Shown piece by piece: positions 40,732-54,708 of a DNA stretch of 64,000 nt. Location: the NCBI GenBank assembly GCA_026398815.1, contig JAPLSA010000028.1, positions 1-64,000 on the forward strand. The letters are read 5' to 3'. The DNA is from Gammaproteobacteria bacterium (GTDB lineage Bacteria > Pseudomonadota > Gammaproteobacteria > Nevskiales > Nevskiaceae). How positions within the stretch are numbered: the stretch's first letter is position 1; the number at the start of each line of letters is the position of its first letter. A program made the translations under genes and the position numbers. Below the pieces are notes generated by a model. It saw nothing but the letters and a program-made list of their open reading frames with translations, was not told where the DNA came from and searched no databases.

Positions 40732-40759
40732 TTCGGAAACTTTCGGAATTCCGTCAGGA
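40732..40759 (+). promoter_or_regulatory. Candidate operator: three 7-bp direct repeats at 10 and 11 bp spacing
   Basis: TTCGGAA (40732), TTCGGAA (40742) and GTCAGGA (40753). The gap to regulator 1 is 76 bp. Compared with the operator at 54681-54708, 21 of 28 positions match and the spacing is the same. Direct repeats at one helical turn fit binding by OmpR-type winged helices. See the findings for the comparison. Confidence 0.6.
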
Positions 40760-40819
40760 CTTCCCGCCGACCCGCTTCGATGATCGGCCGGACCTGAACT
40801 GCCCGGATGCGCTGCTGCC

Positions 40820-41395
40820 ATGACCTCCCCGCTCGCCCGTGATCCGGCGCCACTCGCGGCCGGCTGCCGCGCCGTCGATTCTGCTCGCTGCGCCGCCGAC
40901 GCGGAGCCGCCGGCCGGCGATCGCGACGCCCTGCGCCGCTGGCATGACGATCTGCGTGCCCGCCAGTACCGCGCCGACGCCGAGAACCGGCGGCTGCCGC
41001 GCATCACCCTGCTGCGCCAGGCGCTGTCCGGCTACGGCGACGACCAGGCACTGGCCGGTTACACGCGCCTGCTGGCCTTCGAAGTCGAGCACTGGCAGGC
41101 CCAGGACGGCGCCGAGCGGGCGCTGCCCGCCCCGGTCCGCGAAGCCTGCCGCAGCGCGCTGACGGCGATCATCGCCGCGCTGGCGATCGAGCAGCACGAC
41201 CTGCCGGCCTGCACGACGGCGGTTCGCGCACTCGCGCTGTACGGGCAGACACGGATGCCGGCCGGCGGGCCGCGCCGGCGCCCGACCCGCCTGCTGCGGC
41301 CGGGTTCGGCGAGCCGTCCGGAAGGGCTGCGCGTGCGCCGGCCGGAAGCCGACGGCGGCGACTGGCCGCGCGGATCAGCCAGCGGCCGGAGCTGA
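40820..41395 (+). CDS. Hypothetical protein between regulators 1 and 2
   Basis: 191 residues. No signal peptide or recognised domain. The middle is protein-like and helical (ITLLRQALSGYGDDQALAGYTRLLAFEVEHWQAQ; SALTAIIAALAIEQHDLPA), while both ends are Arg/Pro/Gly-rich and may be overlong. It lies 60 bp downstream of the candidate operator and runs tail-to-tail with regulator 2, overlapping it by 21 bp. Could be the partner gene of regulator 1. The gene is only moderately supported. Confidence 0.45.
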   Translation: MTSPLARDPAPLAAGCRAVDSARCAADAEPPAGDRDALRRWHDDLRARQYRADAENRRLPRITLLRQALSGYGDDQALAGYTRLLAFEVEHWQAQDGAERALPAPVREACRSALTAIIAALAIEQHDLPACTTAVRALALYGQTRMPAGGPRRRPTRLLRPGSASRPEGLRVRRPEADGGDWPRGSASGRS

Positions 41396-51869: not shown

Positions 51870-54611
51870 CTACAGGCCGGCGATCGCTTCGCGGGCCTTG
51901 CGGGTGTTGTCGTTGTCGGCGCCGAGCGTGCGGGTGAAGGTGGCCAGGCTTTCGTCGAGCAGCGTCCGGGCTTCGCTCTTGCGGCCGTGGGCCGCCAGCA
52001 GGCTACCAAGCTTCAGCGTGTACCAGCCGAGATCCCATTCGCCATCGCGGTACTGGCGACGGGCACCCGCGAGTGCGGCCCGGGCCAGCGCTTCGGCTTC
52101 GCTGCCGCGACCGGCGGCATCGGCGATCAGCGCCAGGTTCATGCCGTGCAGCAGGCTGTCCGGATGGTCCGGGCCAACGCTGTCGTGGTCGATCTTCAGC
52201 GCCTCGCGGGCCAGCGGCAGCGCTTCGGCCGCGCGGCCCAGACGCATCAGGGTCAGCGCGACATTGTTCAGGCTGCGGGCCAGCTTCGGCGTATCAGTCG
52301 GCACGCCGTGCTGACGCTGGAAATCGAGATAGCGCTGGAACAGCGGTAGCGCCTCGGCGTTGGCGCCGGACACGGAATAGGCATAAGCGAGGCCATTGGC
52401 GGCGGTAACGCTGTACTGGGTCTCGCGACCGCCACTGATCGCCAGCGCCGCTTCGCGCGCCGCCCGCTGCTCGGCGATCGCCTCGTCGACCCGACCGGCC
52501 ATGTTCAGCACGGTGCCGAGGCTGCGCCGGCGCGACACCGACAGGATGTGCCGTTCACCGTGCTGCCGAAGGGTCTTGCCGAGCACCGACCGCGCCAGCG
52601 CCAGCGCGTCGTCGAAGCGCTGCGCCTCGGCGAGATAGAAGGCCAGGTTGTCTTCGGTCTGCAGCGTCAGTTCGTGATCGTTCCCGAGCCGCCGGCGCAG
52701 CTCGGCGACCATCGCCAGTTCCGGCTCGAGGCAGGCGGCGGCCACGCCGCGCAGGCCGCAGTCGACGGCGATCAGCGCCTGCCGCGCGGTCAGCTCGGTG
52801 GCGGCGTCAAGCGGTCCATGGGCGAGCACCGCCTGTGCCAGCGCCCGTTCGCGCTGCAGCTCGTTGGCGTTCTCGTAGGCAGCGAGCAGGTGCAGCTGCG
52901 CCGCCCGGGTGTCAGCCGCCGTGTCGCCGAGCAGGCGACGGCGCTGCTCGACCGCCGATTCCAGCAACGGAATCGCCAGGGCCGGATCGTCGAAGCCGCT
53001 GTAGATCTGGCCGATGGCATCGGCAATCGCTGCCGCCGGCAGGGAATCGGCCGGGAAACTGCGCTTGAGTTCATCGGCCGCAGGGCCGATCAGCGCGCGC
53101 AGGCGGATATCGGGGTCGGCGCTGATCAGCGGATTGGCCGCCGACAGCAGGTTGCGGGTCAGGAAATCGGTGACCGCCTGGGCCGCCTGCGCCTGCGCTT
53201 CGGCGCGCCGGCTTTCGCCTTCAGCGCGGAAGTACAGCGCGGTGCTGGCCGCGAAGCCGAGCAGCAGGGTCGCCGCCAGCGCCCGCAGCAGGCCACGTCG
53301 CGCCTGGGCACGGGCCAGCCGCTGCTCGAGATCGCGGGCATGGGCCTGCACCGCCAGATCGCGCGCCTGTTCGAGCCGCCGCAGATCGAGGCTGCGCAGC
53401 CGCAGCGCCAGCTGCGCCGCTTCGCCAAGCCGCACAGCCGGATCGCCGGAGGCGGCCGCAGCAATGTCCTCGCGCAGCAGCTGGTCGGCGACATCGTTTT
53501 CCCAGCCCGGCGCCAGCGGCCGGCGGAAATCGCCGACCACCATCTGGTAGAGCATCACGCCAAGGGCATAGACATCGGCACGCGCCGACGGCGGCTGGCC
53601 GGCCAGCAGTTCCGGCGCCAGATACAGCGGTGTGCCGCTGGCGCTGCCATCGCCGATCCCGGTCTGGGTGAAACCCATGCGGGTGATGCCGAGCGCGTCG
53701 AGCTGGCCGGCATCGAACACCCGGCCACTGCCGAAATCGCTGAGCCGGACGTGCGGCAGGCCTTCGCCATCGAGCCGGATCAGCACGTTGCCGGGCTTCA
53801 GGTCCTTGTGCAGCACGCCGGCGCTGTGGATCGCCGCCAGCGCATCGGCGATCTCGGCGACCAGGCGCAGGCGGGTCGCCGGTGACAGCGCTGCCAGCCC
53901 GCCCTTCGCTTCGGCCCATTGCTGCAGGCTGCCTTCGGGGCTGTATTCGAGTTCGATGAAATGCGGCGCGGCATCAAGCTGCCAGTCGAGGATGCGGGCC
54001 AGGTCGTCGCGCGGCCCGAGTGTGTCGTTGAGCAGGCGGAACAGCGTGATCTCGCGTTTCAGCGCAGTGGTCGGCGCACCGTCGGCGGCGAACTTGAACA
54101 CCCGCGGCGCGTGGGTCTTGGCGTGCTCGCCGAGCCAGACCTCGCCGAAACCGCCGCCGCCGAGGCGCTGGCGGAACTGCCAGTGCGGCCGCAGCGGGAT
54201 CGCCTCGCCGGCTGCAAAGCCGAAGCCGTGTGCGGTCGCCAGCGCGGTCAGCTCGCCGCGGCCGCTCGCCTGGCTGCTGACATCGGCGGCCAGCCGGTAG
54301 CCATAGCCGTAGACGGTGCGGATCAGCAGCTGCTCGCTGTCGCCGATCGCCTGGCGCAGGCGGCCGACGCACTTGGTCAAGCTGGCCTCGGTGACGATCC
54401 GGCCCGGCCACAGGGCGTCGAGGATCTCGTCCTTGGTGACCACGTCGCCGGCATGGGCGAGCAGCAGGCGCAGCAGTTCCTGCGGCCGGTATTCGAGCGG
54501 CACGACGACGCCGTCGACCGTCAAGCTCAAGCTGGCCTCGTCGAACTGCACGCGCCCGAAGCGCCACAGGATCGGGCTGCCGGGCGCGGGCTTGTCGAGC
54601 GGCTGGGTCAT
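51870..54611 (-). CDS. Membrane regulator: winged helix + Ser/Thr kinase + TM + TPR (regulator 3)
   Basis: 913 residues. Winged helix at about 14-111 (SLTKCVGRLRQAIGDSEQ and IRTVYGYGYRLAADV), kinase at about 145-400 with glycine loop LGGGGFGEVWLGE, Lys173, HKDLKPGN at 268-275, DFG at 292-294 and APE at 332-334, membrane segment at about 442-461 (LLRALAATLLLGFAASTALYF), TPR-like helices to the end. Close paralogue of regulators 1 and 2, with regulator 1 the nearer. The ATG at 54611 is the natural start. Divergent from the GloVer-repeat gene at 54809, with a triplet operator candidate at 54681-54708. Inputs and outputs are unknown; binding of its own operator is inferred. Confidence 0.9.
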   Translation of the reverse strand: MTQPLDKPAPGSPILWRFGRVQFDEASLSLTVDGVVVPLEYRPQELLRLLLAHAGDVVTKDEILDALWPGRIVTEASLTKCVGRLRQAIGDSEQLLIRTVYGYGYRLAADVSSQASGRGELTALATAHGFGFAAGEAIPLRPHWQFRQRLGGGGFGEVWLGEHAKTHAPRVFKFAADGAPTTALKREITLFRLLNDTLGPRDDLARILDWQLDAAPHFIELEYSPEGSLQQWAEAKGGLAALSPATRLRLVAEIADALAAIHSAGVLHKDLKPGNVLIRLDGEGLPHVRLSDFGSGRVFDAGQLDALGITRMGFTQTGIGDGSASGTPLYLAPELLAGQPPSARADVYALGVMLYQMVVGDFRRPLAPGWENDVADQLLREDIAAAASGDPAVRLGEAAQLALRLRSLDLRRLEQARDLAVQAHARDLEQRLARAQARRGLLRALAATLLLGFAASTALYFRAEGESRRAEAQAQAAQAVTDFLTRNLLSAANPLISADPDIRLRALIGPAADELKRSFPADSLPAAAIADAIGQIYSGFDDPALAIPLLESAVEQRRRLLGDTAADTRAAQLHLLAAYENANELQRERALAQAVLAHGPLDAATELTARQALIAVDCGLRGVAAACLEPELAMVAELRRRLGNDHELTLQTEDNLAFYLAEAQRFDDALALARSVLGKTLRQHGERHILSVSRRRSLGTVLNMAGRVDEAIAEQRAAREAALAISGGRETQYSVTAANGLAYAYSVSGANAEALPLFQRYLDFQRQHGVPTDTPKLARSLNNVALTLMRLGRAAEALPLAREALKIDHDSVGPDHPDSLLHGMNLALIADAAGRGSEAEALARAALAGARRQYRDGEWDLGWYTLKLGSLLAAHGRKSEARTLLDESLATFTRTLGADNDNTRKAREAIAGL

Positions 54612-54680
54612 TGCCTGGGCGTCTCTTTAGGGTGCCGGCCGAAAGTCGCAAGGCCTTGATGTCGTTCGGTTTCCCGAGAA

Positions 54681-54708
54681 TTCTGAACAATTCCGAATTT
54701 GGTCAGGA
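54681..54708 (+). promoter_or_regulatory. Candidate operator: TTCNGAA, TTCNGAA, GTCAGGA triplet
   Basis: TTCTGAA (54681), TTCCGAA (54691), GTCAGGA (54702), spacing 10 and 11 bp, 69 bp from regulator 3 and 100 bp before the GloVer-repeat ATG. Same phase and order as at 40732-40759. Confidence 0.6.

What the first reader, a model, noticed from the sequence alone, without database searches (positions are those of the whole stretch)
40732..54708. Shared three-repeat operator in the divergent gaps of three paralogous regulators
At 40732 and at 54681 the order is TTCNGAA, TTCNGAA, GTCAGGA with spacing 10 and then 11 bp. The two 28-bp blocks match at 21 positions although the surrounding gaps are unrelated by eye. 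At 44274 the third gap has TTCAGGA, TTCAGAT, TTCAGGC at 11-bp spacing. All three lie 69-85 bp from the start of a regulator whose first domain is an OmpR/CadC-type winged helix, a fold known to bind direct repeats at helical spacing. I infer autoregulation plus control of the divergent partner genes.
Basis: partly seen in the sequence, partly recalled or inferred. Interest (0 to 1): 0.85.

Follow-up and report, generated by a model that had tools for sequence, protein, structure and literature searches.

The report
Shared DNA switch for membrane kinase-regulators
Three neighbouring genes in a Nevskia-like bacterium encode unusual membrane proteins that join a DNA-binding domain to a protein kinase, and each sits beside the same kind of three-step DNA repeat, which recurs next to related genes in distant bacteria and is placed like an on-switch for a neighbouring gene, usually one for an exported protein.

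Summary
The two 28-bp blocks and the third triplet lie exactly where stated. With up to 3 mismatches the R1/R3-type triplet occurs nowhere else in the 4.3-Mb genome. The regulators are winged helix (wHTH) - Ser/Thr kinase - predicted TM - helical/TPR proteins; this genome has eight. A matrix trained only on sites from other taxa ranks the three window sites 1-3 of 128,000 positions. Of 152 family members, 53 carry such an array upstream in one orientation, against 2 in the reverse complement.

The interpretation needs correcting. Arrays also stand before other genes, including tandem genes behind regulators whose own promoter lacks the array, antisense to the gene that follows. A -10-like hexamer lies 19-20 bp beyond unit 1 on the partner side in 35 of 55 arrays, with no fixed place on the regulator side; in the window it is exactly 19 bp in all three. 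So the array most likely is an activator box over the -35 region of the partner promoter. Autoregulation is possible but unsupported; wHTH binding is inferred. It works like a PhoB/PhoP or SARP box.

The parts
37890..40655 (-). R1: wHTH - Ser/Thr kinase - predicted TM - TPR regulator
   Evidence: Pfam Trans_reg_C, Pkinase, TPR; hydropathy and HKDLKPAN/DFG motifs
40732..40759 (-). R1 array TCCTGAC-N4-TTCCGAA-N3-TTCCGAA
40779..40784 (+). putative -10 GATGAT of the divergent partner promoter, 19 bp from unit 1
40820..41395 (+). divergent ORF beside R1 (191 aa), function unknown
   Evidence: ORF list; no Pfam or NCBIfam match
41375..44257 (-). R2: wHTH - Ser/Thr kinase - predicted TM - C-terminal region without TPR match; start may be 44188
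   Evidence: motifs HRDLKPQN and DLG, TM by hydropathy
44274..44302 (-). R2 array GCCTGAA-N4-ATCTGAA-N4-TCCTGAA
   Evidence: conserved island in four aligned orthologous gaps
44322..44327 (+). putative -10 CATCGT of the partner promoter, 19 bp from unit 1
44549..47713 (+). R2 partner: probably exported S8 peptidase with Calx-beta and choice-of-anchor D domains
51870..54611 (-). R3: wHTH - Ser/Thr kinase - predicted TM - TPR regulator
   Evidence: TPR region confident in the AF2 model, N-terminal half poor
54681..54708 (-). R3 array TCCTGAC-N4-TTCGGAA-N3-TTCAGAA; possible fourth unit adjoining at about 54671-54677
54728..54733 (+). putative -10 CATCAT of the partner promoter, 19 bp from unit 1, inside a second conserved block
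54809..58693 (+). R3 partner: probably exported GloVer tandem-repeat protein
   Evidence: TIGR03803, 12 stretches

Best explanation
The triplet is the operator of a family of membrane-bound one-component regulators (wHTH - Ser/Thr kinase - TM - TPR). Three wHTH domains (sometimes two or four) bind head to tail on 7-bp units spaced 10-11 bp, with unit 1 over the -35 region of the target promoter, and recruit RNA polymerase to a -10 element 19-20 bp further on. The target is the partner gene, divergent or tandem, often for an exported protein; the C-terminal domain probably senses outside the inner membrane and the kinase modulates DNA binding or oligomerisation. Shown: array, family-wide recurrence, fixed orientation, -10 geometry, domain content. 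Inferred: binding by this wHTH, activation rather than repression, topology, kinase role.
For: Genome uniqueness. Out-of-taxon matrix ranks the three sites first: 27.7, 23.6, 23.1 bits, next unrelated 10.3. Lag-11 self-similarity in the genus: 9 of 59 upstream regions reach 14/18, 0 in control regions; held-out set 16 of 63, at most 2 at the other lags tested. Arrays in 53 of 152 members forward, 2 reverse complement, 4 reversed; 0 of 49 upstream regions of other wHTH genes pass the same threshold. Conserved islands in diverged gaps for R2 and R3 orthologues. Arrays in front of non-adjacent or tandem target genes, antisense to the target. -10-like nAnnnT at 19-20 bp on the target side only: 35 of 55; regulator-adjacent alone 29 of 46, best single offset 20 against at most 10 in 2000 permutations. 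Tandem 7+4-bp recognition by an OmpR-type wHTH is established (PMC4832192), as are SARP 11-bp repeats (PMC10936776).
Against: No binding or expression data. About two thirds of family members show no detectable array, notably paralogues with other recognition helices (L131, L135, L142, L144-L147). The recognition-helix/base correlation (Lys or Arg with G at unit position 5, Fisher 5e-4) is not phylogenetically independent: only 2-3 usable contrasts. No transcription start is mapped, and the -10 elements are weak matches. The unit model was shaped on sites from this family, so the 53 of 152 count is partly in-sample; the out-of-taxon matrix and the lag test are not.
Confidence: 0.78

Rival explanations
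1. The array is chiefly an autoregulatory operator of the regulator gene, and partner control is secondary.
For: Most arrays found lie within 300 bp upstream of a regulator; partner genes vary while the array stays with the regulator; in Sphingomonadales it lies close to the regulator start.
Against: Two Phenylobacterium regulators (L040, L057) lack it upstream but have it behind the regulator gene, before the next gene; arrays occur before peptidase and lipoprotein genes away from the regulator start; no fixed -10 on the regulator side.
Confidence: 0.25
2. The arrays are bound by a separate OmpR-family response regulator that controls this gene family.
For: The architecture equals PhoB/PhoP boxes (PMC4832192); own-genome gene L008 has a similar lag-11 repeat upstream.
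Against: Unit sequence differs between paralogue groups in one genome (R1-R3 versus L160 CTAAC), stays similar within a paralogue group across species, and the element travels with this family into Alphaproteobacteria and Acidobacteriota.
Confidence: 0.08
3. The repeats are merely -35/-10 or sigma-factor promoter elements.
For: Unit 1 overlies the expected -35 position; in Sphingomonadales TTGA in unit 1 and TAAA in unit 3 also stand about 17 bp apart.
Against: Three similar units at 11 bp, with sequences that change together between paralogue groups, are not expected of sigma elements; the fixed -10 lies outside the array.
Confidence: 0.04
4. Residual similarity from gene duplication, or chance.
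For: R1-R3 are paralogues (R1 58% and R2 38% identical to R3).
Against: 0 of 100 shuffles; flanks are diverged while the array is kept; an out-of-taxon matrix finds the sites.
Confidence: 0.01

Closest known systems
M. tuberculosis PhoP / E. coli PhoB boxes (OmpR/PhoB response regulators)
   Same: OmpR-type wHTH; tandem direct repeats, for PhoP 7-bp motifs with a 4-bp spacer (PMC4832192); here a target -10 lies downstream and unit 1 overlies the -35 region.
   Different: No receiver domain found; a Ser/Thr kinase, a predicted TM segment and TPRs are fused to the wHTH; usually three units.
SARP regulators with AfsR/AfsK of Streptomyces
   Same: OmpR-type DNA-binding domain with TPRs, 11- or 22-bp-spaced direct repeats near the -35/-10, Ser/Thr kinase input (AfsR is phosphorylated by AfsK; PMC10936776).
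   Different: AfsR and AfsK are separate proteins and AfsR carries a nucleotide-binding domain; in SARP promoters the nearest repeat is 8 bp from the -10, here 19-20 bp, about one helical turn further.
CadC/ToxR-like membrane-bound one-component regulators
   Same: N-terminal wHTH, one predicted TM segment, C-terminal domain predicted outside; the best solved relative of the R3 wHTH is CadC.
   Different: A kinase with HxDLKPxN and DFG/DLG motifs lies between the wHTH and the TM segment, and the C-terminal domain is a helical/TPR array.

Membership tests
OmpR/PhoB-type tandem operator | wHTH of the Trans_reg_C family | tested here: met
   PF00486 at 56-60 bits in R1-R3
OmpR/PhoB-type tandem operator | direct repeats at about 11 bp | tested here: met
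OmpR/PhoB-type tandem operator | cognate protein binds the repeats | not testable with these tools
   needs a DNA-binding assay
Two-component response regulator | receiver domain | tested here: not met
   no receiver match in the Pfam scan; kinase and TPR instead
CadC/ToxR-like regulator | N-terminal wHTH plus single TM and outside C-terminus | tested here: inconclusive
   wHTH met; one hydropathic segment with basic residues on its N-side; topology not proven
SARP | bacterial transcriptional activation domain (BTAD) after the wHTH | tested here: not met
   no such Pfam match; a kinase follows the wHTH
Hanks-type Ser/Thr kinase | catalytic Lys, HxDLKPxN and DFG motifs | tested here: met
   R2 has DLG instead of DFG; activity untested

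The most novel reading that the evidence does not exclude
A widespread, apparently undescribed class of transmembrane receptor-kinase transcription factors binds its own cis-encoded three-unit operator in multimeric, kinase-tuned form, and because operator and receptor are neighbours, the DNA specificity and target genes of many such orphan regulators can be read from genomes by looking for 11-bp tandem arrays 19-20 bp upstream of a -10.
Probability: 0.4. Interest if true: 0.75.

Novelty: new variant of a known kind. Interest (0 to 1): 0.62.

Why it matters
Bacterial Ser/Thr kinases fused directly to a DNA-binding domain and a membrane sensor would be a one-protein shortcut from outside signal to promoter. 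I found no paper on this architecture in the library searched. The array gives a ready handle: it names the operator, the target gene and the promoter geometry, so binding, multimer size and the role of the kinase become directly testable, and the same rule predicts targets for related regulators in several bacterial groups.

Tried and rejected
Recognition-helix code: Lys/Arg at the PhoB Val197-equivalent goes with G at unit position 5 (10/12 against 3/18 distinct helices), but the tree shows one main Lys clade and only 2-3 independent contrasts, so it is not claimed. AlphaFold2 on R3 with three rows gave pLDDT 62 and a poor N-terminal half; not used for mechanism. The other near-matches in the own genome have 3 mismatches, a level at which the reversed-pattern control gives about as many hits; the one inspected, on contig 24, lies inside an open reading frame. 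Class- and phylum-wide family searches showed patchy distribution (3 of 274 and 6 of 398 genomes, with few candidates scored per genome). Literature searches for wHTH-kinase-TPR fusions found none.

Full report
Check of the observation. The letters are as reported: 40732-40759 and 54681-54708 carry TTCNGAA, TTCNGAA, GTCAGGA at spacing 10 and 11 with 21 of 28 positions equal, and 44274-44302 carries TTCAGGA, TTCAGAT, TTCAGGC at 11 and 11. Searches of the window with up to 3 mismatches return only these, against none in 100 shuffles. In the whole genome the first pattern with up to 3 mismatches occurs only at the two sites, and a generic three-unit pattern with up to 2 mismatches occurs only at R2 and at a fourth paralogue's gap on contig 20.

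What the neighbours are. R1, R2 and R3 each have an OmpR-type winged helix (PF00486) and a Ser/Thr kinase domain with the usual catalytic motifs (R2 with DLG for DFG), then one strongly hydrophobic segment with basic residues on its N-terminal side; R1 and R3 end in TPRs, while R2 has no TPR match there. The R3 model shows a confident helical repeat at the C-terminus but is poor elsewhere. The genome has eight such proteins. Named relatives place the window in or near Nevskia. R2 faces an S8 peptidase, R3 a GloVer repeat protein, both apparently exported; R1 faces an unassigned 191-aa ORF.

Recurrence. In 18 genomes of the genus, upstream regions of the family show self-similarity that peaks sharply at lag 11 (9 of 59 at 14/18 or better, at most 2 at other lags, 0 in control regions). 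Relatives in Sphingomonadales, Caulobacterales, Dyella and Acidobacteriota have the same kind of array, e.g. TCCTGACggacTTCTGAAgaagTTCTGAA. A matrix built from non-Nevskia sites alone ranks the three window sites first, second and third of 128,000 positions, at 27.7, 23.6 and 23.1 bits, the next unrelated position at 10.3. In 63 further regulators fetched afterwards, 16 reach the lag-11 threshold, at most 2 at the other lags tested. With a unit model that ignores positions 4 and 5, 53 of 152 members score above 97.5% of controls; the count is 2 for the reverse complement and 4 for reversed sequence. Upstream regions of 49 other wHTH genes give none above that threshold, though six of them show lag-11 repeats of other sequence.

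Conservation inside gaps. Orthologous gaps of R2 keep an island like AGCCTGAAGAATTTCTGAAAGATTCCTGAAATCG while the rest has diverged, and R3 orthologues keep the array, a possible fourth unit and a second block that contains the proposed -10. Each paralogue group has its own unit: CTAAC in the L160 group, TTCCGAC in the L132 group, TTCGCAC or TTCTCAC in others.

Which promoter it serves. Genus-wide scans found arrays away from regulator starts: before the P-domain S8 peptidase in three genomes and before a lipoprotein gene in three genomes. In two Phenylobacterium loci (L040, L057) the regulator's own upstream region has no array but a strong one stands just behind its stop codon; in L057 the next gene begins 105 bp further on, while in L040 my simple gene caller found no clear co-oriented gene. 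Sphingopyxis L058 has both kinds. Where a target gene could be called, the array is antisense to it, with unit 1 nearest. Aligning all arrays at unit 1 reveals a -10-like nAnnnT at 19 or 20 bp on the target side in 35 of 55 sequences, with no fixed place on the regulator side. For regulator-adjacent arrays alone it is 29 of 46; the best single offset holds 20, against at most 10 in 2000 permutations. In the window the hexamers GATGAT, CATCGT and CATCAT all stand exactly 19 bp from unit 1. Unit 1 then overlies the -35 position and units 2 and 3 lie upstream.

Mechanism. OmpR-type winged helices are known to bind 7-bp motifs with 4-bp spacers head to tail (M. tuberculosis PhoP, PMC4832192), and SARP activators bind 11-bp repeats over the -35 region and engage sigma region 4 (PMC10936776). 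By analogy the array is an activator box for the partner promoter. Binding by the adjacent regulator, activation rather than repression, and the part played by the kinase and the TPR domain are inference. Autoregulation may occur, but nothing here requires it.

Limits. Most family members have no detectable array, especially paralogues with different recognition helices. One recognition-helix position, which aligns with PhoB Val197 (pairwise alignment), a base-contacting residue (PMC3973317), goes with base 5 of the unit, but the tree leaves too few independent changes to count this as evidence. No experiment exists.

Noticed in passing
47700-48140 (-): Broken, frame-shifted copy of an R2-like winged-helix domain without its kinase, divergent from a P-domain S8 peptidase (48361-51786). 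In three sister genomes the gap before that peptidase holds an operator array instead; none scores in this window.
   Followed up: partly
L092, L093, L099 upstream regions: wHTH regulator genes that matched only in the winged-helix part also have 11-bp tandem repeats of other sequence upstream, so cognate arrays may be general for one-component wHTH regulators.
   Followed up: partly
L135, L146, L153 upstream regions: Array-less kinase paralogues share another element, CTCGACAACCTGAA-N6-CCGACAGATAGT.
   Followed up: no
54715-54750: Second conserved block in R3 gaps (GGCTTGCAGCGATCGGGGCGGATGATGGAAATTG on the regulator strand), containing the proposed partner -10.
   Followed up: partly
40820-41395 (+): The R1 partner ORF has no recognised domain, while R1's closest relative in the tree, L148, faces a long GloVer-like gene; the original partner may have been lost.
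   Followed up: no
L292 7462-7490: R2-like array with 2 mismatches 91 bp before a secreted beta-propeller-like gene in G002; no R2-type regulator was seen among that genome's matches.
   Followed up: no
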